Shown: positions 1-62,579 of the stretch, in pieces | Layout: every line of letters starts with the position of its first letter | Position numbering within the stretch: the first letter of the stretch is position 1 | From: Parafrankia discariae | GTDB lineage: Bacteria; Actinomycetota; Actinomycetes; Frankiales; Frankiaceae | Length of the DNA stretch: 64,000 nucleotides | Direction of reading: 5' to 3' | NCBI RefSeq assembly: GCF_000373365.1 | Contig: NZ_KB891102.1 | Coordinates: 17,632 to 81,631 of the forward strand | Notes under the pieces: model-generated | What the model saw: only the letters and a program-made list of their open reading frames with translations | Databases searched by the model: none | Told to the model about the DNA's origin: nothing | Translations under genes and position numbers: made by a program

Positions 1-3000
1 CCCGCCACCACATCCCACAGCCCCTCCACCGACACCACCCCACCCGGCAACCGACACGCCATCCCCACAATCGCCACCGGCTCGTCCGACCCGGCGCGCC
101 GGGGCCGCGGCTGTCCGGCGGCGGGCACCTCGCCGAGCAGCCCGCGCCGCAGCTCGCGGGCCAGGTCGAGCGGAGTGGGATGGTCGAAGGCCACGGTGAC
201 GGGCAGCCGCAGTCCGGTGCTCGCCATCAGCCGGTTGCGCAGCTCGACCGTGGTCACCGAGGTCAGTCCGAGGTCACGGAACGCGGTTCCCGCCGCTACG
301 GCGTCCGCGTCGGCCCCGCCGGTGACCCGGGCGACCTCGGTGCGGACCAGGGTCGTCAGCAGCCGCAGTCCGTCGGCCTCGGGCAGGCCGGCCAGCGTCG
401 TCCGCAGTTCCACCGCGACGGCGTCGTCCGGGGGCCGGGGAGTGGCCAGGGCGTCGATCAGCCCGCGCAGCGGCGCGGGCGGGGCTGCGTCGGCGAGCGC
501 TGCGGCGTCCGGGCGCAGGACGGCCAGCACACCCTGGTCGGCACCGAGCGCCGCGTCGAGCATGGCCAGGCCCACTCGGGCACGCAGCGCCCGGGTGCCG
601 GGCAGTTCGGACAGCCCGCTGCCCTCCCACGGCCCCCAGCTGACGCTGGTCGCCGGCAGGCCGCGCGCGGCGCGGTGCTGGACCAGCGCGGCGAGGAACA
701 CGCTCACCGCGGCCTGCTCGGCCAGCCCCCTCCCGCCGAGCAGGCCCGCGGCCGAGGAACACAGGACGAACACCCGGGTCTCCGGCCCACCGATCAGGTC
801 GTGCAGGTTGAGCGCGCCGGCCAGGGTCGCGGCCAGCCGCCGCTCGTCGTGCTGGAAGCCGCTGACCGGCCCGGCGACGCTCGGGGCGTGGAAGACCGCG
901 CAGACCGAGCGGGCATGACGGCTCAGCACCGCCGCGAGCGCCGCGCGGTCGGCGAGATCGCACGACACGTGGGTGACCGTCGCCCCCGTACCCGCCAGCT
1001 CGGCCCGCAGCGCCTCGGCCGGGTGGTGCGGGCCCGCGCCGCCCGCGTCACTCACGACACCGGGATCGCTGACGAGCAGCAGCCGGCGGACCCCGTAGCC
1101 GGCCACCAGGTGGCGGGCCAGCGCGGCCCCGACCGGGCCGTCCGCGCCGGTGACGACCACCGTCCGCAGCGGGTCACCGAACAGGTTCCCGCCCGTCGGT
1201 GAGTCCTGGTCGGCCAGGACGGCGGCGACCCGGGCGAGCCGGGGCAGCAGGACGACGCCCTGCCGCACGGCGACCTGCGGCTCGCCCGATTCCACCACGG
1301 CCGGCAGGGCCGCCGCCCCCGCCGGGTCGTCCACTGTGAGGTCGAACAGGACGAAACGGTCCGGGTGTTCGGTCTGCAGGGTGCGCAGCAGTCCCCACAA
1401 CGGAGCCCGGATCAGGTCCTCGACGTCGTCATCGGGGCCGACGGCCACCGCCCCCCGGGTGGCGATGACCAGCTTCACGCCCACCAGGCGCTCCTGCTCG
1501 AGCCAGCCGGCGATCTCCCCGGACAGCCAGGTGACCGCCCGCGCCGCGTCGTCGGAGAGAACACCCGCCTTGCCCAGTACGGACCCGCACGTCAGCACGG
1601 CGAGGTCGGGAATCTCGTCGCCGGCGGCGGCGGCGCGGCGCACGGCGTCCAGGTTGGGGTACTGGGAGACCACGATCCCGGCCTCGGTGAGCACCGGCGC
1701 GAAACCGAACGCGTCCGCGCCGATGATCGCCCACCGCCGCTCGGCGCCGGCCACCGGCGCGGACGACCCGACCGGCGGGACCGGGAGGGCGGGACCGCCG
1801 GGCACACCGGCCTGGACGGCGCCCGCGGCGTGGTCCGAACGGCCGCGGACCGAGGACGACGTCACCGACGGACGCGGCACCCAGTCGACCCGGAACAGCG
1901 CGTCATGGTGACCGCTGCTGGCGGCACGCAGCCGCGCCGGACGTTCCAGCAGGACGTGACGGGTGATCTTCCCCGAGGAGGTGCGCGGGATGCTGTCGAT
2001 CTCGTAGAGCTCCTCGGGCACCTTGAAGTACGACAGCCGCTCCCGGCAGACGGCCAGCAGGCGGTCGGGGTCGAGTCCTTCCGGGCCGGGCACCAGGAAG
2101 GCCACGGGAACCTCACCGAGCAGGTCGTGCGGGCGGGCGACGACCGCCACGTCGGCCACCCCCGGGACCTCGCGCAGCACCTCCTCCACCTCACCGGGAT
2201 GGATGTTCTCGCCGCCCCGGATGATGAGCTCCTTGATCCGGCCCGTGATGGTGAAGTAGCCCGCGTCGTCCCGGCGGGCCAGGTCACCCGTCCGGTACCA
2301 GCCGTCGCGCAGCGCGGCGGCGGTGGCCTCGGGCTGGTTGTGGTAGCCGACCATCACGTTCGGCCCGCGTACCCACACCTCGCCCTCGGCTCCGGCGGGC
2401 ACGTCCTGGCCGGTCTCCGGGTCGACGAGGCGCACCCCCAGGCCGGGGACGGGCAGACCGCAGGAACCCTCCACCCGCGCGCCGGTCGGCCAGTTGATGG
2501 TGATCGATCCGCAGGTCTCGGTGCTGCCGTAGGCGTCCAGCAGCGGGGCGCCGAACGTCTCCTCGAAGTCACGGCGCAGCTGCGCAGTGGTGATCGCCCC
2601 CCCGACGAGGCACATCCGCAGGCTGGGCGCGGTGAAGCCACTCTCGCGGGCCGCCCGCACGAGGTAGTGGTACATCGTCGGGACCCCGGCCAGGAAGGTC
2701 GAGCCGTCCTCCTGGATCGCGGCGAGCACCTCCTGGGCGGCGAAGCCGTCGAGGAGCCGGGCACTGGCCCCGACCGCCGTCACGCCGAGCACGCAGGCGA
2801 TGTGCGACAGGCTGTGGAACAGCGGAAGCGGCCACAGGACACGGTCCTGCCCGGTCAGGCCGGGGATCGGGGCGTAGCAGGCCGCCACCGACCACAGGCA
2901 GCTCCGCTGGGTCGACAGCACGCCCTTCGGGCGCCCCGTCGTCCCCGACGTGTACAGCATCCAGGCGATGTCGTCGAGGCCCAGGTCGTCGCGGGCCGCC

Positions 3001-3479
3001 GAGCGGGGCTGCGCGCCCGCCAGTCCGGCGAACGACAGCGCTCCGGCCGGGGCGGTCGGCGGCGGGGTGTGCCCACCGGTCACCACCACCCACAGGTCGG
3101 GCCGATCCCGGAGGACGCGGGCGACCAGGTCGATCCGCGCCGGGTCGGTGACGACCAGCCGGGCCCCGCAGTCGTCGAGCAGGTAGGCCAGCTCCGTCTC
3201 GGTGACCCGGGGGTTGATCGGCACGCCCACCACGGACGCCCGGGCGAAGCCGAGATAGCTCTCGACGGCCTCGACACAGTTGCCGAGCACGATCGCCGCC
3301 CGGTCACCCGGCTGCAGCCGCAGGTCGGCCAGGTGGCCCGCCAGCCGGCCCGTGCGCCGTTCCAGTTCCGCCCAGCCGACGCCACGGCTGGCATCGCGAA
3401 ATGCGATCCTGTCACCGAGACGCTCGGCGTTCCCGCGCAACAGCTGGGACAGCGGTGCGATCAGTTCGGTGCGCAGCAT
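1..3479 (-). CDS. Ansamycin-type PKS, loading module and start of first KS (partial)
   Basis: This is the 5' part of a modular type I PKS that continues past the left edge; 1159 codons are visible. Domains in order: acyl-CoA-ligase/adenylation domain (about residues 1-515, with LYTSGTTGRPKG near 175 and GKITRH near 506), a ketoreductase-like domain (Rossmann motif TGADGPVG near 776), an ACP with phosphopantetheine serine in DLGLTS (about 1070), and a KS beginning EPVAIVGMACRLPGG (about 1129). The KR has lost its catalytic Tyr: where active KRs read YAAAN this one reads QAAVS, so it should be inactive. A ligase-ACP loading module directly downstream of AHBA genes fits loading of 3-amino-5-hydroxybenzoate, as in rifamycin synthase. 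Start: two in-frame ATGs lie 6 bases apart (3485 and 3479). The GGAGGA Shine-Dalgarno abuts the first and is 6 bases from the second, so I chose the second. The substrate is inferred. Confidence 0.9.
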   Translation of the reverse strand, partial: MLRTELIAPLSQLLRGNAERLGDRIAFRDASRGVGWAELERRTGRLAGHLADLRLQPGDRAAIVLGNCVEAVESYLGFARASVVGVPINPRVTETELAYLLDDCGARLVVTDPARIDLVARVLRDRPDLWVVVTGGHTPPPTAPAGALSFAGLAGAQPRSAARDDLGLDDIAWMLYTSGTTGRPKGVLSTQRSCLWSVAACYAPIPGLTGQDRVLWPLPLFHSLSHIACVLGVTAVGASARLLDGFAAQEVLAAIQEDGSTFLAGVPTMYHYLVRAARESGFTAPSLRMCLVGGAITTAQLRRDFEETFGAPLLDAYGSTETCGSITINWPTGARVEGSCGLPVPGLGVRLVDPETGQDVPAGAEGEVWVRGPNVMVGYHNQPEATAAALRDGWYRTGDLARRDDAGYFTITGRIKELIIRGGENIHPGEVEEVLREVPGVADVAVVARPHDLLGEVPVAFLVPGPEGLDPDRLLAVCRERLSYFKVPEELYEIDSIPRTSSGKITRHVLLERPARLRAASSGHHDALFRVDWVPRPSVTSSSVRGRSDHAAGAVQAGVPGGPALPVPPVGSSAPVAGAERRWAIIGADAFGFAPVLTEAGIVVSQYPNLDAVRRAAAAGDEIPDLAVLTCGSVLGKAGVLSDDAARAVTWLSGEIAGWLEQERLVGVKLVIATRGAVAVGPDDDVEDLIRAPLWGLLRTLQTEHPDRFVLFDLTVDDPAGAAALPAVVESGEPQVAVRQGVVLLPRLARVAAVLADQDSPTGGNLFGDPLRTVVVTGADGPVGAALARHLVAGYGVRRLLLVSDPGVVSDAGGAGPHHPAEALRAELAGTGATVTHVSCDLADRAALAAVLSRHARSVCAVFHAPSVAGPVSGFQHDERRLAATLAGALNLHDLIGGPETRVFVLCSSAAGLLGGRGLAEQAAVSVFLAALVQHRAARGLPATSVSWGPWEGSGLSELPGTRALRARVGLAMLDAALGADQGVLAVLRPDAAALADAAPPAPLRGLIDALATPRPPDDAVAVELRTTLAGLPEADGLRLLTTLVRTEVARVTGGADADAVAAGTAFRDLGLTSVTTVELRNRLMASTGLRLPVTVAFDHPTPLDLARELRRGLLGEVPAAGQPRPRRAGSDEPVAIVGMACRLPGGVVSVEGLWDVVA

Positions 3480-3690
3480 TCGCATTCCTCCGTCGGGTTG
3501 GTCCGTCGGGTGCGACGCCCGGCCGGCGCGTCGGCGATGTTCCAGAAACGACACCGCGGCAGCCTGGCGGCCTTTACCAGTCTGACCGAGAAATGCGGAT
3601 AAGCCTCCCCTGGAGCACCCCTGTTCCAGCCCCCGGCTTCGGCCGGCGCCCCCCTGCCGCCCGGGGCGCCGGCCGACGTCACGCCGACGC

Positions 3691-4419
3691 TCAGCCGACC
3701 CCCGCCGGCTGGACCGGCAGGACAGCCAGCAGGTCGGCCGGCCGCCGCAGCACGAGGTCCGGGCCGGCGCCGAGGAGTTCGGTCTCGTCCGGCGTGCCCC
3801 ACAGCGCGGCCGCCGAGCGGACTCCCGCGTCGCGGGCACTGCGCAGGTCGGTCACCGCGTCCCCGACCATCAGGGCCCGTTCCGGGCGGGCGCCGAGCAG
3901 ATCCAGCGCCCGCAGCACGATGTCGGGCGCCGGCTTCGGGCGGGCGACCTCGTCGGAGCCGACCACGTGGTGGAAGCGGCGCAGCAGATCGAGATGCGCC
4001 AGCAGGTCGCGCGCCCGCGAGCCGGTCTTCCCCGTCGCGACGGCGAGGCCGTACCCACGGTGGCGCAGGGTGTCGAGGAGGTCGACCACACCGTCGTAGA
4101 CGAGGACCTCGGCCCGCAGCCGATGGCTCTCCCGGACGAACGGCCCCTCCATCGCCGCCGGAAGCCCCATGATCCGCATGATGTCGAGAAAGTATCTGCC
4201 CTGGTGCCGCTGGTATTCAGTGAAAGGCGCCGGGCCGGCGCCGACGACCTCGGCGTAGGCGATCCGGAATGCCTCCCGCATCACGGCGAAACTGTCGACG
4301 ACCACGCCGTCGAGATCGAAGACGACGGTATTCATGGAATCCAGGTCGGCGGAATCCAGGAGAGGGTTTCGCCCGGGTCCGGACCGGACGGGATCGACGG
4401 CCGCGATCTCGTTCCCCAT
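3691..4419 (-). CDS. rifM: HAD-superfamily phosphatase, AHBA pathway (RifM-like)
   Basis: HAD hydrolase of 242 residues. Motif I is DLDGVVVDS (nucleophile and acid Asp), motif II the Thr of VATGKTGS, motif III the Lys of RPKPAPD, and motif IV VGDAVTDLRSARDAG, so all catalytic motifs are intact. In AHBA clusters a phosphatase of this family works with the oxidoreductase in the aminoshikimate branch supplying kanosamine-derived precursors; the exact reaction here is inferred from context. The start at 4419 follows a strong AGGAGGG site, and its ATG shares one base with the TGA of the upstream oxidoreductase (TGATG), so translation should be coupled. A later ATG at 4335, just before motif I, is possible but lacks such a site. 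A gap of 211 bases separates it from the PKS start on the same strand. Confidence 0.85.
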   Translation of the reverse strand: MGNEIAAVDPVRSGPGRNPLLDSADLDSMNTVVFDLDGVVVDSFAVMREAFRIAYAEVVGAGPAPFTEYQRHQGRYFLDIMRIMGLPAAMEGPFVRESHRLRAEVLVYDGVVDLLDTLRHRGYGLAVATGKTGSRARDLLAHLDLLRRFHHVVGSDEVARPKPAPDIVLRALDLLGARPERALMVGDAVTDLRSARDAGVRSAAALWGTPDETELLGAGPDLVLRRPADLLAVLPVQPAGVG

Positions 4420-5687
4420 CAGATCCCTCCTGACCGCGGGCCGCCGCCCACCACCGCCGGCGAGCGGGCCGAACGGTAGAACCGTTCCACGGCGTCGACG
4501 GCGCGCCGCGCCTCCGCGACGGCGCGTCCCCGCGTACCCGGGTCGGCGAGCAGACCCGGCAGCTCGTCGAGCTGGCGGGCGTACTCAGCGCCCACCGGCT
4601 CGGTCGGCACCGGCACCCGGACGGTGTCGCCGTCCCGCTTGTAGGTCAGCACCGACCCGTCCCGCCGGTTCGGGCTGAAACCGAAGGTGCAGCTCAGCGT
4701 GGCGGTTCCCGCGCTGCCCTCCACTCTGATCACCGTGCTGTCGAGCGCCTCGTGGGAGGCCCAGCTGGCACGCAACGACACCGACACCCCGGTCTCGGTG
4801 ACCAGGAACCCGCGAGCGGTGTCCTCGACGTCGCCGCGCCGTCGCCGCGCCGCCTCGTGTCGGCCGGAGTCGGGGTCACCGGCATGACGCCAGCTGGCTC
4901 CCCCCACCCCGCTGCGGACGAAATCGGCCGAGACGGTGCCCACGACCTGGGTGAAGGCCGCGGTACCGACCAGCGGCGCGACCGTGTCGAGCAGGTGCCA
5001 GCCGAGGTCGAGCAGTGCGCCGCCCCCGGCGCGCGCGGTGTCGGTGAACCAGCCACCGGCGTCGGGTACGCCTCGGGCACGCACCCAGGCCAGCTCGACG
5101 TGCCGGATCGTCCCGCAGGCCCGCGCGAGGGTGTAGAGCGCCCGGACATCGGCCCGGCAGCGCGCCGCGCTGCCGGCGAGCAGCGCCGCCCCGCCCGCCC
5201 GCTCGGCCCGGGCCAGTTCGTCCGCCTGCGCGCCGCTGAGGCACACCGGCTTCTCCAGGAAGACAGGCAGGCCCGCGGCGAGCAGTTGCCCGCCGACCGC
5301 ACTGTGCAGGTGGTTCGGGACGGCGACGACCGCCAGGTCGATCTCGTCGGGGCGGAGCAGATCCGGGCTGGCGAGCAGGGGCGCGTCGACGCCGTCCGCG
5401 GCGACCGCCGCGCGGGCGTCCACGTCGAGGTCGACCGCCGCGGCGACCGTGAACCTCGGATGATCACGCAGTCGGGGCAGCCAGATCGACCTGCCGGCCC
5501 AGCCCAGCCCGACGACGGCGACCCGGACGGCGCCGGTCCCGGCCCCGCGTGCCCCCGACCCCGACCCCGACCTCGACGGCTGCGGCTGCGGCTGCGGCTG
5601 CGGAACGGTCCCGCGCGACTGGACGGGCACCCGTCGCGCACCGACCGCCCCCGCCGAACCCACCGCGCCCGCCGGCGGGGCGCTCAC
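4419..5687 (-). CDS. rifL: Gfo/Idh/MocA oxidoreductase, AHBA pathway (RifL-like)
   Basis: NAD(P)-dependent oxidoreductase: N-terminal Rossmann motif VGLGWAG (about residue 57 on) and the family motif LEKPVCLSG. It lies between AHBA synthase and the HAD phosphatase, as the RifL protein does in rifamycin-type clusters, where it is needed to make the amino-sugar precursor of AHBA. The GTG start at 5687 overlaps the stop of the synthase gene by four bases (GTGA); another GTG lies one codon upstream. Residues 1-56 are an unusual Gly/Ala/Ser/Pro-Gln-rich extension built from hexanucleotide repeats (5553-5603), so the annotated start could be too early, but no ATG exists before the Rossmann fold. 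A basic insertion of about 25 residues (around 4830-4890) is also unusual. Length is 422 residues, longer than I would expect for the family. Confidence 0.85.
   Translation of the reverse strand: MSAPPAGAVGSAGAVGARRVPVQSRGTVPQPQPQPQPSRSGSGSGARGAGTGAVRVAVVGLGWAGRSIWLPRLRDHPRFTVAAAVDLDVDARAAVAADGVDAPLLASPDLLRPDEIDLAVVAVPNHLHSAVGGQLLAAGLPVFLEKPVCLSGAQADELARAERAGGAALLAGSAARCRADVRALYTLARACGTIRHVELAWVRARGVPDAGGWFTDTARAGGGALLDLGWHLLDTVAPLVGTAAFTQVVGTVSADFVRSGVGGASWRHAGDPDSGRHEAARRRRGDVEDTARGFLVTETGVSVSLRASWASHEALDSTVIRVEGSAGTATLSCTFGFSPNRRDGSVLTYKRDGDTVRVPVPTEPVGAEYARQLDELPGLLADPGTRGRAVAEARRAVDAVERFYRSARSPAVVGGGPRSGGI
5553..5603. repeat. Hexanucleotide microsatellites inside the rifL-like gene
   Basis: Two adjoining arrays: ccccga units (about four, 5553-5576) and ggctgc units (four, 5578-5601). 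On the coding strand they specify Gln-Pro and Ser-Gly dipeptide runs in the N-terminal extension of the oxidoreductase. Length variation here would be in-frame and should not disturb the Rossmann domain. Confidence 0.85.
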
Positions 5688-6862
5688 CACCCGCTCCGGC
5701 TCTGGTCCGCCGCCCACGCGACTATCTCGGCGACGTCGCGGATCTGCTCCTCGGTGCCGAGCAACGTGCGGTGGTGCAGCCAGATGCCGTCGGCGGCGAC
5801 CGCCTCGGCGTTCGGGCATCGCCGTGTGAGGTCGTCGACGGACGCGTCCGGTGCCCCCGTCTCCCAGAAGCCGTCGGAACGGTAGATGACCCGGAACGCG
5901 GCGAAGGCGGGCAGGCCCGCCACGACCAGCCGGTCGACGAACTCGTTGCGCTGTTGTTCCACCAGCCCGGGAACCCGGAACATCGCCATGTAGTGCGGTT
6001 TGCGGTCGCAACGCGTGTCGCGGGCCTGCGGGACGACACCGTCGATTTCCGCGAGTAGTTTCGCCAGCAGCGGCCAGCGCTTCTCGCGGGTGTCTATCTG
6101 GCTGTCGAGCCGTGCCAGCTGAACCCGCAGCACGGCCGCGGAGAACTCGTTGAGCCGGAAGTTCGAACCCGACGTCTGGTGGAAGTAGAAACGGTCGGTC
6201 CTGGGACGTCCGCAGCTGTGCCGCAGGAAAGCCTCCTCCCGCAGCCCGGCCGCGGGGAAGAGAACCGCGCCGCCCTCACCGGCCGTCATGAGTTTCCCGT
6301 TCTGGAAACTGAAGGCGGCGACCGTGTCCAGCTCCCCGACGCGCCGTCCCTGCCACCGCGCGCCGTGCGCGTGCGCGGCGTCCTGCAGGAGGGGGACACC
6401 GGTGTCGGCGGAGAGCTTACCGAGCGCGTCCATGTCCGCGACCTCGCCGGCGATGTGCACCGGCATGATCGCCCTGGTGCGCGGGCCCACGGCCGCCGCC
6501 GCGGCGGCGGGGTCGATGTTGTAGGTGAACGGATCGACGTCGACCGGTACGGCGACGGCACCGAGACGCTGTGCCGCCTGCGACGACGAGATGAAGGTGA
6601 AGGCCGGGACGATGACCTCGCTGCCCGGCCCGACCCCGAGGACCTGCAGTGCGAGCTCGAGGGCATGCGTGCCGTTCGTGACGGCGAGACCGTGCTCAGC
6701 CCCGTGGTACCGGGCGAACTCGTCCTCGAAGGCGTCGACCTCGCCGCCCCCCATCCGCCACCACTGACCCTGCTCCAGCGCACGGACCAGACCTGCGCGC
6801 TCGCCGTCGTCGTACTGCGGCCACCCCGGGAGGGGTGACCGCAGAACCGGGGCAGCACTCAT
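5684..6862 (-). CDS. rifK: 3-amino-5-hydroxybenzoate (AHBA) synthase
   Basis: PLP enzyme of the DegT/DnrJ/EryC1 fold, 392 residues (RifK is close to this length). Long blocks match what I know of RifK: WPQYDDGERAGLVRALEQG, WWRMGG, LAVTNGTHALELALQV, VIVPAFTFISSSQAAQRL, LLQDAAHAHGARWQG, and FSFQNGKLMTAGEGGA with the PLP lysine in QNGKLM. It converts aminodehydroshikimate to AHBA, the mC7N starter unit of ansamycins and mitomycins. Start: of two in-frame ATGs, the second (6862) has GGAG at good spacing and gives an N-terminus of the RifK type; 6874 is the alternative. It is the first gene of a coupled set with the oxidoreductase and phosphatase, ending in the PKS. The AHBA assignment rests on recalled sequence similarity and the neighbours. 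Confidence 0.93.
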   Translation of the reverse strand: MSAAPVLRSPLPGWPQYDDGERAGLVRALEQGQWWRMGGGEVDAFEDEFARYHGAEHGLAVTNGTHALELALQVLGVGPGSEVIVPAFTFISSSQAAQRLGAVAVPVDVDPFTYNIDPAAAAAAVGPRTRAIMPVHIAGEVADMDALGKLSADTGVPLLQDAAHAHGARWQGRRVGELDTVAAFSFQNGKLMTAGEGGAVLFPAAGLREEAFLRHSCGRPRTDRFYFHQTSGSNFRLNEFSAAVLRVQLARLDSQIDTREKRWPLLAKLLAEIDGVVPQARDTRCDRKPHYMAMFRVPGLVEQQRNEFVDRLVVAGLPAFAAFRVIYRSDGFWETGAPDASVDDLTRRCPNAEAVAADGIWLHHRTLLGTEEQIRDVAEIVAWAADQSRSGW

Positions 6863-7293
6863 CGCTCTCCTCATTTCTCACCACTGTCAGGAGACGTTTC
6901 TCCCGCACACGTCGAACGTCGGCAGATACCGCACCCGTGCTTTTCGGAATCCGCCGAGACCCGCCCCGTCCAGCAGCGAAAGCGGCCGACCAGCATGATT
7001 CGAATTTTTTACAGATTAACCGAGGAATTGTTTCTCGTCAGCCCCAGATGCAACCCCTAGAACCCCCCTCCAACCGATCCGAAGAGATCACGGCATGGCG
7101 TGAACGTGAGCGGTGAACCGACCGTTACGAGGGCCGGGAACCCGGGAATTCGATGGTCACGATCCGCTCGGGATCGGCACTTCGGCGTCGTCCCACGGGA
7201 CGGATCAGCACACGCCGAAATCAGCGTCCGACGGGAAGCGTCCGACGGGATCAGCGCGCCGGGCCGGATGCCGGTGCCAGCCAGACGCCGGTA
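6863..7293. promoter_or_regulatory. Intergenic region upstream of the AHBA operon
   Basis: No gene seen. It separates the SARP regulator stop from the AHBA synthase start; both are on the minus strand. The stretch 6995-7035 is markedly AT-rich for this genome (it holds a T6 run and TTAAC), so it is the likeliest site for the AHBA-operon promoter. I could not define -10/-35 boxes or the spaced heptamer repeats that SARPs bind with any confidence. Confidence 0.4.
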
Positions 7294-10221
7294 TTAGCCG
7301 GACGCGGCGGTGAGGCTGTCTGCGCGGCGGTGGTGGTGCCGGCGGAGGTCGTCCTGCGCCGTCTTTCCGTGCTCGTCACTGAGCCAGCGGGCGAAGCACA
7401 GGTGCCACTCCCCCCGGACCGCCCGCGGGATCTGCGAGTAGGCGACATCCCGGACGAAGACATGCCGGAACTCGTAACGTGGGTCGGGGTCGGCGACGGT
7501 CGGTACCTGCCGCAGCACACCCCGCCGTTCGAGGTACTCCAGCTCCCACAGGACGTCCTCGCGGGTCAGCTCGCACTCGGCCGCGACCGGCGCGGCCCAG
7601 ATCGTCGCGCCGAACACCGCTGCGCCCTGCAGGACCAGGCGGCTGCGTGGCGGCAGGGTGTCCAGCCACGCGGCGATCACACCGTGAACCGTGCGCGGGA
7701 TCGACACCATCGCGGCGACCGGGCCGACCGGACCGGCGCTGTCAATCGTCAGCGCCGGGGACGCGCCGGCGCCGTCGGCGCCCTGGGCCGCTCTGAGCAT
7801 CTCGACGAGGGCGATCGCGAACAGCGGATTGCCGCCCACCTTCGCGACCGTCGCGCACTCGTGGGCCGCGGGCCCGGGGCCCTCCTCCGCGGCGGACGGC
7901 CGCCCCGTGGACGCCGGGCGCAACCCGTACCGCACCGCCAGGTCGACCATCAGCTGCTGGACGGCGTCCGGGGAAAGCTGGTCGAGGGACATCGTCGTCG
8001 CGTCACGCTTGCCGCCGGCCCAGAACGGCCGCCGTTCGAGCAGGTCCGGCCGGGCGCTGGCGACGACGAGCAGCGGAACGTGGCCCAACTGCTCGTCGAG
8101 CACCTCCAGGAAGTCCAGCAGCCGGTCGTCCCCGCGATGCAGGTCCTCGACGACGAGCACCGTCGGGGCCACCGCCGCGAACCGCCCGAGCGCGCGGCGC
8201 CAGGCCGCGAGTACGCCCGACCCGTCCGCGCCGCCCGGCCAGGAGGGGTCCAGCAGCGGGACCAGTTCGGCCGCCAGCCGCCGCGCGGCGCCGAGGGGGG
8301 CGCCGGTCATCCCGACCGCGGCCGCGAGCTTCGTCACCGCCAGGTCACGGGTGTCGTCCTCGGTGATCCCCGCCCAGGTGCGGGCGACGTCGGCCAGCAC
8401 CTCGAACGGACCGCTCGGGAACCTCCCGATCCGGCCGTGCAGGAACTGGACGGCGCTCGGGCCGGCCGCGTCGCCGGCCTCCCGGCAGAACTCCCACAGC
8501 AGCCGGCTCTTGCCGATGCCCGGCTCGCCGAAGATCGTCACCAACCGTGACCGGCGGCGGCGGCCGGTCTCGGCGAGCAGCCGGTGCAGCAGCTCCTTCT
8601 CATGTTCCCGCTCGAGGAAGGGCACGTGGAGCGTCCCCTCACCGCCTGTCGGACCGGCCCCGAACGCGGTCTCCAGCCCACCCGAGCGCACCGCCACCAC
8701 ACCGCCGACACCCCGGCCGTGCTCATCCGTCAGGGCATGGGTGAAGGCTCCGTCGGAGGCCGCCCTGGTCGCCTCGCAGACCCGTAGCTCCCCCCGGGGC
8801 ACAGCGGCCAGCAGGCGCATGCACCGGCCGGTGACGTCCCCCGACATCCCCGCGGAGGCCGGCGACGCCGCGGCCGCCGGCGTGGCCTGGCTGAGGGTCG
8901 CGAGGACCTCTCCGGTGGTGACGGCCATCCGCAGGTCGTACTGCCCGGCTCCGCACGCGGACGCCTCGGCCGACGCGGCGACGGCCCGCCGGATCGCCAG
9001 GCCCGCGCGTACGGCGCGTTCGGCGTCGTCCTCCCGGGTGCGGGGCAGACCGAAGACCGCGATCCACACCGAGCCGAGGGCGGTGTGGACCTCACCGCCG
9101 AAACGGGCGGTCTCAGCCCGGACCGTGGCGGTGACGGCCCGCAGGATCCGGTCGGCGTCCTCCGGGTCGGAGAGCTCCGAGCTCCCGGACCCGATCTCGA
9201 GGCGGCCGGCGAGGACGCTGACCCATTTCCGGGCGGAGCGCATGCCCGGGGCCAGGGCGGGGACGGCCTCCACCGCGGACGGCCTCACACCGCCGTCGCC
9301 GGCGGCCGCGACACCACGGCTCACGGCGAACGCTCCGCGGTCCCTGCCGGCACCGCGGTCCCTGCCGGCCCAGCTGTCCCTGCCGGCACCGCCACCCGTG
9401 ATGGCACCGCTACCCGTGATCAGACGACCCGGGGTGAGAAGCGCGCCGTGACGGGAGGTGAGCGCGGCCGTCGACCGCGGGGTCAACCAGGGTTCGTGGT
9501 CCAGGATCGCGCGTTCCAGCCGCTGCAGCTCATGCCCGGGATCGAGACCGAGCTGGTCGACAAGGGCACCCCGGGTTCGCCGGTAGCGTTCGAGCGCGTC
9601 GGCCTGCCGGCCGCAGCGGTAGAGCGCCAGCATCAGCAGCCCGGTCAGCCGTTCCCGGAGCGGGGTCGCCTCGACAGCCGCCTCCAGCTCGGGCACGAGC
9701 TCCTGGTGGTGGCCGAGGGCAAGCTGCGCCTGCGCCCAGTCCTCGAAGGTCACCATGCGCGCGCTGTCCAGGGCGGCGACCTCCGGCCAGGCCAGGCCCT
9801 CCTCCACCAGGTCGGCCAGCGCGGGCCCGCGCCAGTGACCGAGCGCGGCCGCCAGGGTCGCGGCCGCGGCGGCCCACGAACCGGCGGCGAGCTCCGTCCG
9901 GCCACGCGCGCTCAGATCCTGGAAGGCGGGCAGGTCCACCTGGTCGGTGCGGACGCTGAGCTGATAGCCGGGGGGCCGGGTCAGCACGTCCGCCCCGCCG
10001 CTCAGCGTCCGGCGCAGGCCGGCCACCGCGTTCTGCACCATTTTGCGCGCGGTCACCGGGGGGTCCTGGTCCCAGAGGGCCCGCAGCAACCTGCTGGTGG
10101 CCACCGCCGTGTTCGGATACAGGAGCAGGAAGCCGAGCGTGGCGCGCTGGTGGACACCGGGTACGACGATGGGCTGGCCGTCCCGGATCACTTCCAGCGG
10201 CCCCAGCACGTGGAATCGCAC
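7294..10221 (-). CDS. SARP-family regulator with cyclase-like and AAA ATPase domains
   Basis: Large transcriptional regulator, 975 residues. Order: OmpR-type winged-helix DNA-binding domain (1 to about 95), bacterial transcriptional activation domain (about 100-245), a Gly/Arg-rich repetitive linker (about 265-300), a class III nucleotidyl-cyclase homology domain (about 335-460), and an AAA/STAND ATPase with Walker A GEPGIGKSR (about 563) and Walker B VLVVEDLH. The cyclase-like domain looks catalytically dead: the metal-binding Asp positions are Arg (LAGRL for FADL) and Ser (LGSVW for IGDAV). SARPs activate polyketide clusters, so this is the probable pathway activator of the adjacent AHBA/PKS genes, on the same strand and just upstream. 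Start: GTG 10221 with a GAAGG site nine bases away. Confidence 0.88.
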   Translation of the reverse strand: MRFHVLGPLEVIRDGQPIVVPGVHQRATLGFLLLYPNTAVATSRLLRALWDQDPPVTARKMVQNAVAGLRRTLSGGADVLTRPPGYQLSVRTDQVDLPAFQDLSARGRTELAAGSWAAAAATLAAALGHWRGPALADLVEEGLAWPEVAALDSARMVTFEDWAQAQLALGHHQELVPELEAAVEATPLRERLTGLLMLALYRCGRQADALERYRRTRGALVDQLGLDPGHELQRLERAILDHEPWLTPRSTAALTSRHGALLTPGRLITGSGAITGGGAGRDSWAGRDRGAGRDRGAFAVSRGVAAAGDGGVRPSAVEAVPALAPGMRSARKWVSVLAGRLEIGSGSSELSDPEDADRILRAVTATVRAETARFGGEVHTALGSVWIAVFGLPRTREDDAERAVRAGLAIRRAVAASAEASACGAGQYDLRMAVTTGEVLATLSQATPAAAASPASAGMSGDVTGRCMRLLAAVPRGELRVCEATRAASDGAFTHALTDEHGRGVGGVVAVRSGGLETAFGAGPTGGEGTLHVPFLEREHEKELLHRLLAETGRRRRSRLVTIFGEPGIGKSRLLWEFCREAGDAAGPSAVQFLHGRIGRFPSGPFEVLADVARTWAGITEDDTRDLAVTKLAAAVGMTGAPLGAARRLAAELVPLLDPSWPGGADGSGVLAAWRRALGRFAAVAPTVLVVEDLHRGDDRLLDFLEVLDEQLGHVPLLVVASARPDLLERRPFWAGGKRDATTMSLDQLSPDAVQQLMVDLAVRYGLRPASTGRPSAAEEGPGPAAHECATVAKVGGNPLFAIALVEMLRAAQGADGAGASPALTIDSAGPVGPVAAMVSIPRTVHGVIAAWLDTLPPRSRLVLQGAAVFGATIWAAPVAAECELTREDVLWELEYLERRGVLRQVPTVADPDPRYEFRHVFVRDVAYSQIPRAVRGEWHLCFARWLSDEHGKTAQDDLRRHHHRRADSLTAASG
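9338..9418. repeat. Degenerate tandem repeats encoding the SARP linker
   Basis: Imperfect direct repeats of the type tccctgccggcaccgc and acccgtgatggcaccgct. They encode an Ala/Gly/Arg/Asp-rich flexible linker between the activation domain and the cyclase-like domain. Probably slippage-derived. Confidence 0.7.
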
Positions 10222-11298: not shown

Positions 11299-11314
11299 TC
11301 CGCCCGGCGGGCCG

Positions 11315-12013
11315 TCAGCGGCGGGCGGGCCGCCAGGTTCGCATGGCCTCGTCGAGGTCGGTGTGGGCGAGAGCGGGCCGCGGCAGCGGGGTGGGCCCGT
11401 CGCGCCGGGGGCGCAGGCCGTCGAGCAGGATGGTGAGGTAACGCCGCCACAGGCGCGGGTCGGTCTGGCGGCTGTACTCGGCGACCGCCCCGATCATCAT
11501 CTGGATCAGCGCGATGTCGGTCATCTCGATGTCCGCGCGCAGGTGGCCGTCGGCCTGGGCGCGCGCCACGAGCTGGCCGACGACCGGGCCCAGGCGCTCG
11601 CGTGAGGCGGCGATGCGGTCGCGGCCGTACGTGGAGCTGACCATGATCTCGTAGAGGCCGCGATCGGTGGCCAGGGCCTCGATCGTGAAGATCAGGAAGT
11701 CGACCAGGGCCGTCCAGGAGTCGGCCTGGGCCGCGGCGCCCTCGGCGCGGGTCACCATGTGGTCGATCTTTTCCTCGAACAGGGCCTCGACCAGGTGCTC
11801 CCGACTGGGGAACCGGCGGTAGACCGTGCCGATGCCGAGCTCGGCGTGCCGAGCGATGTCGTCGAGCGTCGTCTCGAGGCCTCGCTCGGCGAACAGCTCC
11901 CTGGCCGCGGCCAGGATGCGCCGGCGGTTGCGTTCCGCGTCGCGGCGCAGCGGCCGCTCAGCCGCCACCGGTCCGGCCGGGTCGGCCGGACCGGCTTCTG
12001 GTGTGAGGGTCAC
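11315..12013 (-). CDS. TetR-family repressor, likely of the adjacent MFS exporter
   Basis: A 232-residue TetR regulator. The N-terminal helix-turn-helix covers about residues 28-75, with TTLDDIARHAELGIGTVYRRFPSREHLVEALF as the recognisable core (interrupted here only for description). The C-terminal ligand-binding domain has no obvious specificity. GTG start at 12013. It diverges from the MFS exporter gene, and the 130-base space between them contains two perfect palindromes (12054-12070 and 12102-12116) of matching sequence. That is the classic layout of a TetR protein controlling itself and an efflux pump until the exported compound binds it. If the pump serves the AHBA-derived product, that product could be the inducer (inference). 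Confidence 0.9.
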   Translation of the reverse strand: MTLTPEAGPADPAGPVAAERPLRRDAERNRRRILAAARELFAERGLETTLDDIARHAELGIGTVYRRFPSREHLVEALFEEKIDHMVTRAEGAAAQADSWTALVDFLIFTIEALATDRGLYEIMVSSTYGRDRIAASRERLGPVVGQLVARAQADGHLRADIEMTDIALIQMMIGAVAEYSRQTDPRLWRRYLTILLDGLRPRRDGPTPLPRPALAHTDLDEAMRTWRPARR

Positions 12014-12053
12014 CTTACGAATCTACCACGAGATCGGAGTCACACTCTCCACT

Positions 12054-12116
12054 TGGAGGATGATCCTCCACTTTGCGTTAGCGTTCCCCTCGAGCAAAAG
12101 TGGAGGAAGTTCCTCC
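12054..12116. promoter_or_regulatory. Twin palindromic operators between tetR and MFS genes
   Basis: Two perfect inverted repeats with a one-base centre. Site 1 (12054-12070) is TGGAGGATGATCCTCCA; site 2 (12102-12116) is GGAGGAAGTTCCTCC. They share the consensus GGAGGA-W-G-W-TCCTCC and their centres are 50 bases apart, roughly five helical turns. They sit where the two divergent promoters must lie, so they are the best candidates for TetR binding sites. The sequence between them also carries an outer inverted pair, CCTCCACTTT and AAAGTGGAGG. Confidence 0.8.
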
Positions 12117-12145
12117 GATCCTTTCGCCTGAGGGGAACCACGCCC

Positions 12146-13693
12146 ATGACCACCACCAGCCACGACGCCACTGGCCTCGTGACCAGCGGAGCCCGACCCC
12201 CCGACCCGATCCCCACGCCCCGGGCGGGCGGGTCCGAGGCGGCCAACCCACACCACGCCCGCCGCTGGCTGGTTCTGGGCGTGCTCGCCGTCGCGCAGCT
12301 GATGGTGATCCTCGACGCGACGATCGTGAACATCGCGCTGCCCTCCGCCCAGCGGGACCTGGGCTTCTCCAACGACGCCAGGCAGTGGGTCGTCACCGCG
12401 TACGCCCTGGCCTTCGGCAGCCTGCTGCTGCTCGGCGGGCGCGTCGCCGACCTGTTCGGCCGCAAGCGGACCCTGCTGGTCGGGCTGGCCGGCTTCGCGG
12501 TCGCGTCCGCGGTCGGTGGCGCGGCGACCAGCTTCGGCATGCTGGTGGTCGCGCGCGCCACCCAGGGCGTGTTCGGCGCGCTGCTCGCCCCCGCCGTCCT
12601 CGCCCTGCTGACGACGACCTTCACCGACGCGCGGGAACGCGCCCGGGCGTTCGGCATCTACAGCGCCGTCGCCATCGTCGGCGGCGCCGTGGGGCTGCTG
12701 CTCGGCGGTGTCCTCACCCAGTACCTGGACTGGCGCTGGTGCCTGTACGTGAACCTCGGGTTCGCGGTCCTGGCCCTCGCCGGCGGCGCCGCGCTGCTGC
12801 ACCACACGCCCAGCGACGACCGTCCCCACCTCGACCTCCCCGGCACGCTCACCGTCTCGGCCAGCCTGTTCGCCATCGTCTACGGGTTCGCCAACGCCGA
12901 GACCCACTCCTGGTCCGCCCTCGGCACCTGGGGCTGCCTGGTCGCCGGCGCCGTGCTGCTGGCGGTCTTCGTCGTGCTGCAGACGCGGGTCGCCCACCCG
13001 CTGCTGCCGATGCGGGTCCTGCTCGACCGCAACCGCGCCGCCGCGTACCTCACGGTCTTCGCCGTCGGCATCGGCATGTTCGGGATCTTCCTGTTCCTCA
13101 CCTACTACCTGCAGCAGAACCTCGGCTTCTCGCCGATCCGCAGCGGTCTGGCCTTCCTGCCCATGGTCGCCGCGGTGATGATCACCGCGACCACCGCGAC
13201 CAGCCTCCTGCTCCCCCGCGTCGGCGCCCGCCTGATGATCAGCGGCGGCATGCTCGCCGCCGCCGGCGGCATGCTCTGGCTCACCGCGCTGGACGTCGAC
13301 AGCACCTACCTGGCCGACATCCTGCCGGCCCTCGTGGTCATCGGCCTGGGCCTCGGCCTCGCCACGTCACCGGCGATGAACGCCGCCACCAGCGGCGTCG
13401 AGCCCCGCGACGCCGGCGTCGCCTCGGCGACGGTCAACACCGCCCAGCAGGTCGGCGGCTCCATCGGCACCGCGCTGCTGAGCACCATCGCCGCCAGCGC
13501 CACCAGCGACTACCTGCACGGCCGCACGCCCACCGCGGACGTCCTCGCCGCGGCCTCGGTGCACAGCTACACCACCGCGTTCGCCTGGGGCGCGGCCATC
13601 CTCGCGGTCGGCGGGATCATCTGCGGCCTGCTGGCGCGCCCCGGCGTCCCGGAGGCCGGCGAGGCCACCGCGCAGGCGGCACCGCACCTCTGA
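12146..13693 (+). CDS. MFS drug exporter, DHA2 (14-TMS) family
   Basis: A 515-residue proton-driven efflux protein. The DHA2 signature LDATIVNIALP lies in the first membrane segment and GGRVADLFGRKR forms the conserved loop 2-3. About 14 hydrophobic segments follow, and the internal loop MNAATSGVEPRDAGVASATVNTA (quoted in parts) is typical of the family. Chosen start is ATG 12146, after a GAGGGG site; the frame is open far upstream but that part overlaps the divergent repressor. Because the repressor and twin palindromes adjoin it, substrate-induced export is likely. It may give self-resistance to the product of the neighbouring PKS cluster; substrate unknown. Confidence 0.9.
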   Translation: MTTTSHDATGLVTSGARPPDPIPTPRAGGSEAANPHHARRWLVLGVLAVAQLMVILDATIVNIALPSAQRDLGFSNDARQWVVTAYALAFGSLLLLGGRVADLFGRKRTLLVGLAGFAVASAVGGAATSFGMLVVARATQGVFGALLAPAVLALLTTTFTDARERARAFGIYSAVAIVGGAVGLLLGGVLTQYLDWRWCLYVNLGFAVLALAGGAALLHHTPSDDRPHLDLPGTLTVSASLFAIVYGFANAETHSWSALGTWGCLVAGAVLLAVFVVLQTRVAHPLLPMRVLLDRNRAAAYLTVFAVGIGMFGIFLFLTYYLQQNLGFSPIRSGLAFLPMVAAVMITATTATSLLLPRVGARLMISGGMLAAAGGMLWLTALDVDSTYLADILPALVVIGLGLGLATSPAMNAATSGVEPRDAGVASATVNTAQQVGGSIGTALLSTIAASATSDYLHGRTPTADVLAAASVHSYTTAFAWGAAILAVGGIICGLLARPGVPEAGEATAQAAPHL

Positions 13694-13805: not shown

Positions 13806-15389
13806 ATGCCGACCGTGCCCGGGGACGCCACGCACGAGGGACCCGCCGCGCGGCGGCAGGTCCTGCTCACCTGCCTGGCCGCGATGTTCGCGACCACCTT
13901 CACCGCGACGCTGCTCACCGTCTCGTTGCGGACGGTGGCCGACGACCTCGGTTCCAGCACCGGGGTGGTCTCCTGGGCGGTCACCGGTTCGCTGTTCGCC
14001 CTCGCGGTGGCCATGCCCATCCTCGGTCGGATCGGCGACATCCGGGGCCACCGGCGGACGTTCCTGATCGGTACGACCCTCGCCGTCGTGTTCTCGCTGG
14101 CGACCGGGCTCGCGTGGGACGCCGCGTCGCTGATCGGATTCCGCATCATCGCCCAGCTCGCGGGATCGGCGACGATCCCGGCGTCGTTCGCGATGCTGTT
14201 CGCGGTCTTCCCGCCGCAGGAACGGGTGCGTCCCTCGGCGTGGGCGTCGGGAGTGCTGTCCGGGGCGGCGGTGACCGGTCTCGCCGTCGGCGGGCTGATC
14301 ATCGACGCCGTCGGGTGGCGGGCGGTGTTCTTCATCCAGGCCGGGATCGCGGTCATCCCGCTGGTCGCGGCGGTCCGGGTGCTGCCACCGGACCGGGGCG
14401 GGCAGCGCCGCCCGCTGGACCGCACCGGCGCGGTGGTGCTGGCCGCCGCCGTCTTCGCGCTCACCTTCGGGGTGAACCGGGCGGCGGCGTGGGGGCCGCG
14501 GCCGGTCGTGATCGCGCTGCTCGTCGCGGTGATCCCACTGTTCTGGCTGCTCACCGTGGTCGAGCGGCGCAGCGCCGACCCGGTCGTCCCGATGGAGCTG
14601 CTGGCCAGCCGGGATGTCCGCACCGCCGGGCTGACCTCGTTCCTGGTCTCCGCGGCGCACCTGGGGAACTTCCTGGTGACCCCGCTGCTGCTGGAGGGGG
14701 TCTTCGGCCTGTCGGTGGCTCTGACCTCGGTGGTGACGATGTGCCGCACGCTGTCGATCGCGCTGGCCGCGCCGTCGGCGGGCTGGGTGGGCACCAGGAT
14801 CGGGCCGCGCGCGCTCGCCTCGACCGCCGGCGCGGGTTACATGATCGCACTGATCGTGATGGCCTTCGGTACCCGCTCCGATGCGCTGTGGCTGGTCATC
14901 ATCGGCCTGATCGGCAGCGGCCTGGCCTTCGGGCACGCGCAGCCGCCGCTGATCGTGCTCGCCAGCAACGCCGTGCCAGAGGGCAGTTTCGGGCTGGTCA
15001 CCTCCCTGCAGCAGACGGCGGGCCAGATCGGCGGCGTCGTCGGCACGAGCCTGCTGTCCGCGGTCGTCACCGACACTCTGCGCCCCGGGCCGTTCGCCGC
15101 CGCCTACCTGATCGCCGCGGGGTTCGCCCTGCTGGGCGGGGCGACGGTCCTGCTGGGCTCACGGCGCGCCGCCACGCCCCCGGATCCGGGTTCGGGCGAG
15201 GCCGCGGCGACCGGCATCGCGCAGGCCCGCCGCGGGCCCGCCGCCCGGTTGGCTCTCGCCGTCCGCCGCGACCCCGGGCAGGCGGCTCGGCGCGCCCAGC
15301 AGGTGGGCCAGCGCGACCCCGGCGATGCTCTCCGCCGCGAGCAGGCCGACCAGCACGACCAGCTGGAAACGCGCCGCCTGCCCGGGTGA
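13806..15389 (+). CDS. MFS transporter, second drug-exporter-like protein
   Basis: A 527-residue MFS protein related to QacA/EmrB-type exporters. About 14 hydrophobic segments are seen from FTATLLTVSLRTVADDL through the last near FALLGGATVLLG, and IGDIRGHRRTFLIG is the loop 2-3 motif. Start ATG 13806 follows a GGGGGGAG site. Beyond the last membrane segment the frame runs on for about 75 hydrophilic Arg/Gln/Asp-rich residues, and this tail lies antisense to the 3' end of the next gene (231-base overlap). Either the tail is real low-value sequence or an earlier stop has been lost. Same strand as the DHA2 exporter, 112 bases downstream; co-transcription is possible. Confidence 0.85.
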   Translation: MPTVPGDATHEGPAARRQVLLTCLAAMFATTFTATLLTVSLRTVADDLGSSTGVVSWAVTGSLFALAVAMPILGRIGDIRGHRRTFLIGTTLAVVFSLATGLAWDAASLIGFRIIAQLAGSATIPASFAMLFAVFPPQERVRPSAWASGVLSGAAVTGLAVGGLIIDAVGWRAVFFIQAGIAVIPLVAAVRVLPPDRGGQRRPLDRTGAVVLAAAVFALTFGVNRAAAWGPRPVVIALLVAVIPLFWLLTVVERRSADPVVPMELLASRDVRTAGLTSFLVSAAHLGNFLVTPLLLEGVFGLSVALTSVVTMCRTLSIALAAPSAGWVGTRIGPRALASTAGAGYMIALIVMAFGTRSDALWLVIIGLIGSGLAFGHAQPPLIVLASNAVPEGSFGLVTSLQQTAGQIGGVVGTSLLSAVVTDTLRPGPFAAAYLIAAGFALLGGATVLLGSRRAATPPDPGSGEAAATGIAQARRGPAARLALAVRRDPGQAARRAQQVGQRDPGDALRREQADQHDQLETRRLPG

Positions 15390-32084: not shown

Positions 32085-35000
32085 TTATCCGGCGTTCTCG
32101 CCGTCGCCCGCGGCCTCCAGGTCACCTTCCAGTTCAAGATAGGTGGATCGCAGGCCGGCGAGGGTGGCTTCCTCAGGGGCGTCCCACAGGCCACGCTCCG
32201 CGGCCTCGAGGAGGCGCTCGGTCATGCCGCGCAACGCCCACGGGTTGGACGTCCGCAGGAACTCGCGGGTCTCGGCGTCGAAGACGTAGGAGGCGGCCAG
32301 CGACTCGTACATCCAGTCCTGCACGACACCGGCGGTCGCGTCGTAGCCGAACAGGTAGTCGACCGTCGCGGCCAGCTCGAACGCGCCCTTGTAACCGTGC
32401 CGGCGCATCGCCGCGATCCAGCGCGGGTTCACCACCCGGGCGCGGAACACCCGGTGGGTCTCCTCCTGCAGGGTGCGGGTGCGCACGGCGTCCGGCAGCG
32501 CGCTGTCACCGACGTAGGCGGCCGGCGAGGTGCCGGTGAGCGCGCGCACGGCGGCCACCATCCCACCGTGGTACTGGAAGTAGTCGTCGGAGTCGACGAG
32601 GTCGTGCTCGCGGGTGTCCTGGTTCTTCACCGCGATCTGGATGCGGCGGAACGCGGTCTCCATGTCGGCGCGGGCCTCGGCGCCGTCCAGGCCGCGCCCG
32701 TAGGCGTAGCCGCCCCAGACCGCGTACACCTCGGCCAGGTCGGCGTCCGAGCGCCACTGCCGGGAGTCGATCAGCGGCAGCAGCCCGGCGCCGTACGCGC
32801 CCGGTTTCGAACCGAAGATCCGGGTGGTCGCGCGGCGCAGCGCGGCCGGGTCGGGCGCGTCACCGGGACCGCCGGCGCCGGCCGTACCCGCGGCGCCGCC
32901 AACACCGGCCGTGCCGGTGGTGCCGGCGGTGCCACCAACACCGGCCGTGCCGGTGGTGCCGCCACTCCCGCCGACCGTCGGGACGGCCCCGAGCGCCGCC
33001 AGGTCGGCCCGGACGTGCGCGGCCAGCGCGTTGACGTCGTCGGGCTCGTCGAGCACCGCCACCGCCCGCACCGCGTCGTCGAGCAGGGCGACGACGTGCG
33101 GGAACGCGTCCCGGAAGAACCCGGAGATCCGCACCACCACGTCCACCCGGGGACGCCCGAGCTCCGCGGCCGGGACGACCTCGAAGCCGGTGACGCGGCG
33201 GGACGCGTCATCCCAGGTGGGACGGCAGCCCAGCAGCCAGAGCACCTCGGCGATGTCGTCGCCCTGGGTGCGCATCGCCGACGTCCCCCAGACTGTCAGC
33301 CCGACCGAGGCCGGGTAGCCGCCGGTGTCGGCGAGGTAGCGCTCGATCAGCGAGTCGGCGAGCGCCCGGCCGGTCTCCCAGGCGAGCCGGGACGGGATGG
33401 CCTTCGGGTCGACGGAGGCGAAGTTACGCCCGGTGGGCAGCACGTTGACGAGCCCACGGGTCGGCGAGCCGGACGGGCCGGGCGGGACGAACCGCCCGTC
33501 GAGGGCCCGCAGGGTGTTGACGATCTCGTCCGGGGTGCGGGCGAGGCGGGGGACGACCTCGGTGGCGGCGAAGGTGAGGACCCGCTCGACCTCGGCCCGG
33601 GCGGCGGCCGGCACCGCCTCGGCCGGCTGCCCGGCCACCACCGTGCTGACCGCGGCCGGCGACCAGCCGGCGTCCTCGAGGGCGGCCACCAGCGAACGGG
33701 CGGTCCGCTCGAACGCGTCGACCTGCGCCCGGGACGCCTCGGTGTCGCCTTCGGTGTGGCCCAGTGCCGCGCGCAGCCCGGGGACCGCCCCGGCCTGGCC
33801 CGCCCACATCTGGTTGGCGCGCAGGATCGCGGTTACCAGGTTCGTCCGCGCCTCCCCGGCCGGGGCCACGCCGAGGATGTGCAGGCCGTCGCGGATCTGG
33901 GTGTCCTTGACCTCGCAGAGGTAGCCGTCGACGTGCAGCAGGAAGTCGTCGAACTCGGCGTCGCTGGGCCGGTCGGCCTGCCCGAGGTCGTGGTGCAGCT
34001 GCGCGGACTGGATCAGCGTCCAGATCTGGGCGCGCACGGCGGGCAGCTTCGCCGGGTCGAGCGCGGCGAGCGTCGCGTACTCGTCGAGGAGCTGCTCCAG
34101 TTTGGCCATGTCACCGTAGGAGTCGGCGCGGGCCATCGGCGGCACGAGATGATCCACGATCACGGCGTGGGCGCGGCGTTTGGCCTGCGTCCCCTCCCCC
34201 GGGTCGTTGACCAGGAACGGGTAGACGAACGGCAGGTCACCGAGGACGGCGTCCGGCGCACACCGCGCGGACAGCCCGAGGCCCTTGCCGGGCAGCCACT
34301 CCAGCGTCCCGTGCTTGCCGAGGTGGATGACGGCGTCCGCGCCGAAGTCCTCGTCCAGCCAGCGGTAGGCCGCCAGGTAGTGGTGGGACGGCGGCAGGTC
34401 CGGGTCATGGTAGATCGCCACCGGGTTCTCCCCGAACCCCCGCGGCGGTTGGATCATCACGACGATGTTGCCGAACCGCAGCGCGGCCAGCACGATCGCC
34501 GGTTCCGCCCCGCCGTCGTCGTCGACATAGAGGGCGCCGGGCGGCGGGCCCCAGTGCTCGGCCATGGCACCGCCCAGCGACTCGGGCAGGCGGGCGAACC
34601 ATCCCTCGTAGGTGGACGCCGGCACCCGCGCCGGCGCCGCGGCGAGCTGCTCCTCGGTCAGCCACTCGACGTCGTGCCCACCGGCGGCGATCAGGGCGTG
34701 GATCAGGGCGTCCCCGGCCGCGGCGTCCGGCCTGATCTCGCCCGGCCCGCCGTCGGCGGAGCGGAGGTCCTCGCCCGGGTAGCCCTCACCGAGGTCGTAG
34801 CCGGCGGCGCGCAGCGCGTCGAGCAGCAGCACGGCCGACGCCGGGGTGTCGAGCCCGACGGCGTTACCGACCCGCGAGTGCTTCGTCGGGTACGACGAGA
34901 GCACGATCGCGATCTTCTTCTCGGCGGTCGGGGTGTGCCGCAGCCCGGCCAGCCGGGACGCGATCCCGGCGACCCGTGCGGTGCGCTCCGGATCGGCCAC

Positions 35001-62244: not shown

Positions 62245-62579
62245 ACCACCCGACCGTCCGCCGAATCGCGGCAGATGCCCCCTACCTGGCCATTCGGCAA
62301 TGTGGCGGACCAGACGTGGGGGCACCCGTTCGGGTACCCGAGGGCACCTTCGGACGGCGGCCCCCGGGTGGGCCGGACATTGGCGCACCCGGGCGGTCAC
62401 CGAACGGGAAGATCCGGCGTCCCGGGCGGTGTCGGGGGCGGTTACCGTCGGCGGCGGACGTGGGCGGCGGGAGGATGCGGATCACCTCTCCGGCGTTGTC
62501 CCTTCGGGGCCTGGATCCCGGCACTCCGCGGGGGCCGACCGCCGATCGGTGAGGTAGTTCGCGACAGTTGGAGGAACGC
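62245..62579. other. Intergenic region upstream of the ABC exporter
   Basis: About 335 bases without a gene; it must hold the ABC-operon promoter. I see no clear -10/-35 pair. The region contains gggtacccg-type short repeats near 62330-62345. Confidence 0.35.

What the first reader, a model, noticed from the sequence alone, without database searches (positions are those of the whole stretch)
12054..12116. Two matching perfect palindromes between tetR and an exporter gene
GGAGGAwGwTCCTCC occurs twice, each perfect, with centres 50 bases apart, in the only place a repressor of both genes could bind. This gives a direct prediction of the operator, and a route to finding the effector molecule, which may be the neighbouring cluster's product.
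Basis: seen in the sequence. Interest (0 to 1): 0.55.

Follow-up and report, generated by a model that had tools for sequence, protein, structure and literature searches.

The report
TetR operators at an exporter promoter
Between a repressor gene and a drug-exporter gene of an actinobacterium lie three (not two) probable binding sites for that repressor, an ordinary self-contained on/off switch that recurs in many relatives and whose DNA letters follow one amino acid of the repressor in a way that looks like a simple recognition rule.

Summary
The two palindromes are real (12055-12069, 12102-12116), centres 47 bp apart, not 50. They are the only exact copies in the 7.9 Mb genome. They are best read as operators of the adjacent TetR: 16 of 21 TetR homologues with a divergent DHA2 exporter carry two or more such sites, in 15 of 16 with a TAnnnT box between them. 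Comparison redefines the site as AARYGGAG-N7-CTCCRYTT; the palindromic centre is not conserved, and the window has a third site (12032-12054). In 39 homologues with a site, one alignment column of 207 (residue 51, equivalent to TetR Arg28) tells the innermost half-site base: Asp GGAG, Asn GGAT, Ala GGAA (one protein). This ties protein to palindromes and is the most novel point, though ancestry is not formally excluded. No wider regulon appears. The neighbouring cluster is AHBA/ansamycin-type, but its product is probably not the effector: 8 of 8 tested module-bearing relatives lack the AHBA marker, and a congener keeps the cluster without the switch. New member of a known kind.

The parts
12098..12120 (.).
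12051..12073 (.).
12032..12054 (.).
   Evidence: conserved in L015
12079..12084 (+). Probable -10 box of the exporter promoter, TAGCGT; TA...T invariant in the nine aligned loci
   Evidence: function inferred
12020..12025 (-). Probable -10 box of tetR, TAGATT, 6 nt before the GTG start, which suggests a leaderless transcript
   Evidence: read from sequence; inferred
11315..12013 (-). tetR: TetR_N + SbtR-like C-terminal domain (PF00440, PF21597); Asp51 of TLDDIA is equivalent to TetR Arg28
12146..13693 (+). DHA2/EmrB-type MFS exporter (TIGR00711, 235.4 bits over cut-off 230.2)

Best explanation
A local TetR/exporter switch. The TetR at 11315-12013 (SbtR-like C-terminal domain, of the kind of M. 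abscessus MAB_4384) binds as a dimer to three operators of the form AARYGGAG-N7-CTCCRYTT between its gene and the divergent DHA2 exporter. Site 1 lies over the expected -35 region of the exporter promoter and site 2 just downstream of the inferred start, so that the -10 box TAGCGT is held between them; site 0 overlaps the inferred tetR promoter and gives autoregulation. A small toxic molecule, not identified and probably not the neighbouring ansamycin-type product, would bind the C-terminal domain, release the DNA and switch on export. Shown: the sites, their recurrence, the TAnnnT box between them, and their covariation with residue 51. Inferred: binding, repression, the promoters, induction, and direct contact of residue 51 with the innermost half-site base.
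For: Sites above chance. Of 78 TetR homologues, 21 have a divergent DHA2 MFS within 500 bp and 16 of these 21 have two or more sites; 14 of 16 pairs are 41-43 bp apart, and 15 of 16 hold TAnnnT 5-7 bp after site 1. Scan for paired GGAGGN5CCTCC in 393 genomes of the class: 10 places, 7 of them TetR|MFS intergenic regions, although the backwards control also gave 4. Residue 51 alone of 207 columns has complete mutual information with the half-site base in 39 proteins, and again in the 23 left without the MAB_4384-like group. Half-sites in 38 loci: Asp 67 G, 1 C; Asn 42 T, 3 C, 1 G; Ala 4 A. TetR Arg28, the equivalent residue, is one of two side chains that hydrogen-bond to operator bases (passages of PMC7102968; equivalence by the table). 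The nearest solved relative, MAB_4384, represses a divergent efflux pump through a 27-bp palindrome (passages of PMC5895659); the residues critical there, Asp14 and Phe57, are kept here.
Against: No binding or expression data. Five of the 21 pairs lack two sites (L025, L036, L105 none; L104, L122 one). The window's 47-bp spacing (and 37 in L119) departs from 41-43. The sigma-70 consensus scan found no promoter, and the exporter's -35 is poor. The residue-base link is clustered on the tree: 4 residue changes on the best tree, only 1 forced by starred branches, no significance from independent pairs. Every window site has 2 mismatches to the motif.
Confidence: 0.87

Rival explanations
1. The switch belongs to the adjacent AHBA/ansamycin-type cluster: the TetR senses the cluster's product and the exporter secretes it, as RifQ/RifP does for rifamycin B.
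For: The cluster is adjacent: AHBA_synth_RP over cut-off (326 vs 246.65), DegT aminotransferase, Gfo/Idh oxidoreductase, PKS, arylamine N-acetyltransferase-like protein. RifQ/RifP is a precedent. A remnant of the exporter in the congener shows that it once stood at this locus there too.
Against: None of 8 tested module-bearing relatives has AHBA_synth_RP over cut-off, and none of the 10 other AHBA genomes tested has a TetR match at E 1e-50. Congener G019 keeps the cluster at 84-93% identity and the second exporter at 86% but has no tetR match, none of the intergenic region and only the 3' end of the exporter. RifQ's protected sequence and gene order differ. Module-bearing genomes found later were not tested for AHBA.
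Confidence: 0.13
2. The palindromes work at RNA level, as weak terminators or as a hairpin that hides the exporter's ribosome binding site.
For: The scan calls both palindromes terminator-like. RNA 12083-12160 folds at -32.3 kcal/mol, z -4.1, with GAGGGG 12130-12135 paired; the segments on both sides of site 2 pair better than shuffles in the window (p 0.002).
Against: The outer pairing is not seen in the 15 other loci (combined p 0.52) and vanishes if the transcript starts near 12091 (z -0.3). Relatives conserve half-sites with an unpaired centre, and site 1 would lie upstream of the start.
Confidence: 0.05
3. The sites belong to another regulator, or are chance GC-rich palindromes.
For: TetR homologues with other recognition helices lack the motif upstream, so adjacency alone proves nothing; the backwards control of the paired scan also gave 4 hits.
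Against: Recurrence next to this TetR subfamily and covariation with its residue 51.
Confidence: 0.04

Closest known systems
MAB_4384 of Mycobacterium abscessus and its operator upstream of mmpS5/mmpL5 (PDB 5OVY; PMC5895659, passages read)
   Same: Closest solved TetR (E 1.7e-58; 47% identity); divergent efflux gene; operator with 13-nt arms and 1-nt spacer, which fits the frame of our motif; Asp14 and Phe57 conserved.
   Different: One palindrome instead of three sites; the homologues nearest to it (61-71% identity) read GGAT-N7-ATCC with Asn at position 51; MmpS/MmpL pump instead of a DHA2 exporter. The operator letters of MAB_4384 itself were not seen (figure only; no genome with it).
RifQ/RifP of Amycolatopsis mediterranei (PMC5787919, passages read)
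   Same: TetR repressor and exporter next to an AHBA-based cluster.
   Different: Protected sequence ACCGACCCTTATATGGTGTATAAGAA; rifP and rifQ co-transcribed, start upstream of the site; relieved by rifamycin B.
SbtR of Thermus thermophilus (PMC4948773, passages read)
   Same: Gives its name to the Pfam C-terminal domain PF21597 that this TetR matches.
   Different: Operator consensus TGACYRNNYRGTCA, other letters and half-site spacing.
TetR/tetO and AmtR (PMC7102968, PMC2723105, passages read)
   Same: Alpha-2 residue Arg28 (His43 in AmtR) reads or lies near an inner G of the half-site.
   Different: Arg or His instead of Asp/Asn/Ala; different operators.

Membership tests
TetR family repressor | TetR_N DNA-binding domain plus C-terminal ligand domain | tested here: met
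   PF00440 58.7 bits (cut-off 24), PF21597 57.9 bits (cut-off 27)
TetR family repressor | binds a palindromic operator next to its gene and represses a neighbour | not testable with these tools
   needs gel shift or expression data; only comparative support
DHA2 (EmrB-type) MFS exporter | over the TIGR00711 cut-off | tested here: met
   235.4 vs 230.2 bits
MAB_4384-type regulator | operator core GGAT-N7-ATCC in one copy, as in its nearest homologues | tested here: not met
   window has GGAG-N7-CTCC, three copies; same frame, other letter and number
RifQ/RifP | RifQ operator and co-transcribed gene order | tested here: not met
   other operator letters and divergent genes
SbtR | operator TGACYRNNYRGTCA | tested here: not met
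   the three sites read otherwise; compared by eye
AHBA/ansamycin cluster-linked exporter | module occurs with AHBA genes | tested here: not met
   0 of 8 module-bearing relatives over the AHBA_synth_RP cut-off; module lost in G019
QacR-like binding of two dimers per site | two dimers per operator | not testable with these tools
   reported for MAB_4384 (passages); not measurable here

The most novel reading that the evidence does not exclude
A one-residue recognition rule for this TetR subfamily: the alpha-2 residue equivalent to TetR Arg28 reads the innermost conserved base pair of the half-site, Asp to G:C (GGAG), Asn to T:A (GGAT), Ala to A:T (GGAA), so that operators can be predicted from the protein sequence. 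The pairing of Asp with cytosine and Asn with adenine is chemically sensible (recalled).
Probability: 0.55. Interest if true: 0.55.

Novelty: new member of a known kind. Interest (0 to 1): 0.38.

Why it matters
It turns a palindrome seen by eye into a testable operator map (three sites, two promoters), finds no sign of a wider regulon in this genome, warns that the neighbouring ansamycin-type product is probably not the inducer and that the other exporter (13806-15389) is the better candidate for that product, and offers a simple protein-to-DNA rule by which operators of this actinobacterial TetR group could be predicted.

Tried and rejected
Regulon in the own genome: the exact pattern has 2 copies, both here; the refined 23-mer with up to 2 mismatches gives 10 places, 3 of them here, against 31 per strand for the backwards control. 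RNA hairpin or terminator reading: not conserved. Identity with RifQ: operator and layout differ. A text search for the motif letters returned unrelated papers, judged from the listing only. Searches for a known TetR recognition code (listings) showed such work for the LacI, GntR, IclR and MerR families but none for this rule; no wider claim is made. No genome with MAB_4384 itself turned up among 248 of its presumed genus (best 71% identity).

Out-of-sample check of the rule with a second query: 32 homologues were fetched, chosen by eye from the list as not used before (several other listed places, mostly of family f1, were not fetched; one, L174, turned out to repeat L040). Only one, L162 (Asn), had a site of 12 or more, and it fits (GGAT/ATCC); the other 31 lack the motif, most having other recognition helices.

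Rows dropped before the residue-base counts: loci without a site of 12 or more of 14. The counts hold 38 of 78 loci and 39 of 110. Dropped loci with the same kind of recognition helix include L046 (cut off by the contig end), L065 and L113 (no site found: these do not fit) and L111 (two sites of score 11, GGAG with Asp: fits).

Full report
Observation. Two perfect 15-bp palindromes lie at 12055-12069 and 12102-12116, between tetR (11315-12013, minus) and a DHA2 exporter (12146-13693, plus). Their centres are 47 bp apart, not 50. Shuffled windows contain no exact match. The own genome has only these two exact copies, and one-mismatch copies (11) are rarer than the backwards control (33 per strand).

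What the site really is. TetR homologues were collected from the family (35 genomes), from a class sample (393 genomes), from the family of G068 (5), from one genus (248) and from named contigs (2 loci). Scoring 78 upstream regions with AARYGGA-N9-TCCRYTT, in which the fourth half-site base is left free, 38 have a site of at least 12 of 14. With this motif the window has three sites, 12032-12054, 12051-12073 and 12098-12120. Site 0 and site 1 are 19 bp apart and share ACTT; the closest relative L015 (TetR 69%, exporter 74%) has the same arrangement, and L064 also has a 19-bp pair.

Arrangement. Of 78 homologues, 21 have a divergent DHA2 MFS within 500 bp; 16 of 21 have two or more sites. Spacing is 41-43 bp in 14 of these 16, 47 in the window and 37 in L119; 15 of 16 have TAnnnT 5-7 bp after site 1. 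In a nine-sequence alignment both GGAG/CTCC cores and TA...T are invariant. A scan of 393 genomes for paired GGAGGN5CCTCC, made without reference to any gene, gave 10 places: 7 are this intergenic region in 7 genomes, 3 (L073-L075) have no TetR or MFS match within 1.5 kb; the backwards pattern gave 4. In MAB_4384-like homologues the single site, for instance CGGATTGACTCTATCCACTT in L051, contains TTGACT 17 bp before TAGATT, that is, the operator sits on a -35 box (read).

Residue and base. Residue 51, the first Asp of TLDDIA, lies 14 before Tyr65, as TetR Arg28 lies 14 before Tyr42; the AmtR table gives the same frame. In 38 loci, half-sites read G with Asp (67 of 68), T with Asn (42 of 46) and A with Ala (4 of 4; one protein). 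In 39 proteins this column alone of 207 has complete mutual information with the majority base; among the eight best columns shown the next value is 0.81. Without the MAB_4384-like group (23 proteins, 209 columns) it is again complete, next shown 0.62. The tree, built without the column, places Asn in three groups and Ala in one, with 4 changes on the best tree, but starred branches force only one, and the independent-pairs test is too small to be significant. A further query added one informative locus, which fits. Arg28 and Gln38 are the only TetR side chains that hydrogen-bond operator bases, at +2 and +3. I read this as support for direct recognition; shared ancestry is not excluded.

How it works (inferred). 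Site 1 covers the expected -35 region of the exporter, site 2 lies just after the inferred start near 12091, and site 0 overlaps the inferred tetR promoter, whose -10 TAGATT ends 6 nt before the GTG start. Occupation would block both promoters; a ligand would release the TetR. The 47-bp spacing, about half a helical turn off the usual 42-43, is unexplained.

Effector. The left edge of the window and the 17.6 kb before it carry an AHBA/ansamycin-type cluster. Against a link to the switch: AHBA_synth_RP exceeds its cut-off in 11 of 30 genomes tested, none of them among the 8 module-bearing relatives tested; the 10 other AHBA genomes have no TetR match at E 1e-50. Of the window genes compared, only tetR and the exporter families recur near the module in the relatives' neighbourhoods, apart from matches between exporters and of the protein at 62568-63845 in three of eight. 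In congener G019 the cluster and its right flank are syntenic and 84-93% identical, the second exporter (window 13806-15389) is kept at 86%, but window 11299-13579 is replaced by about 1 kb with an ORF without Pfam match, and only the exporter's last 114 bp remain. So the exporter once stood there and was lost without loss of the cluster. This rests on one congener.

Verdict. An ordinary TetR/exporter switch, better defined than reported, with a testable recognition rule as its one unusual feature.

Noticed in passing
window 1-10221 and L085 (G000:C1:1-17700): AHBA/ansamycin-type biosynthetic cluster: PKS, AHBA_synth_RP phosphatase (3691-4419), Gfo/Idh oxidoreductase, DegT aminotransferase (5684-6874), N-acetyltransferase-like protein (L085:2013-2948), SARP-type regulator (7294-10221). 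A second AHBA_synth_RP locus lies on contig C25 of the same genome.
   Followed up: partly
window 13806-15389: A second, different DHA2-like exporter, kept at 86% with the cluster in congener G019; better candidate for export of the cluster product.
   Followed up: partly
L099:11296-12460: In G019 the tetR-exporter stretch is replaced by a 303-aa ORF without Pfam match, followed by a 114-bp remnant of the exporter gene.
   Followed up: partly
window 12055-12116: Operator spacing 47 bp, about half a helical turn more than the 41-43 bp of 14 of 16 comparable loci.
   Followed up: no
window 12083-12138: Inverted repeat around site 2 whose RNA would pair the exporter's GAGGGG; strong in the window only, not in 15 relatives.
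   Followed up: yes
L120:3195, L122:3242: Homologues with Lys at position 51 carry AAACGGA half-sites, apparently with a shorter spacer; possible further variant of the rule.
   Followed up: no
window 32085-39303: Cobalamin genes (CobN, CobB/CobQ-type, CobD, CbtA).
   Followed up: no
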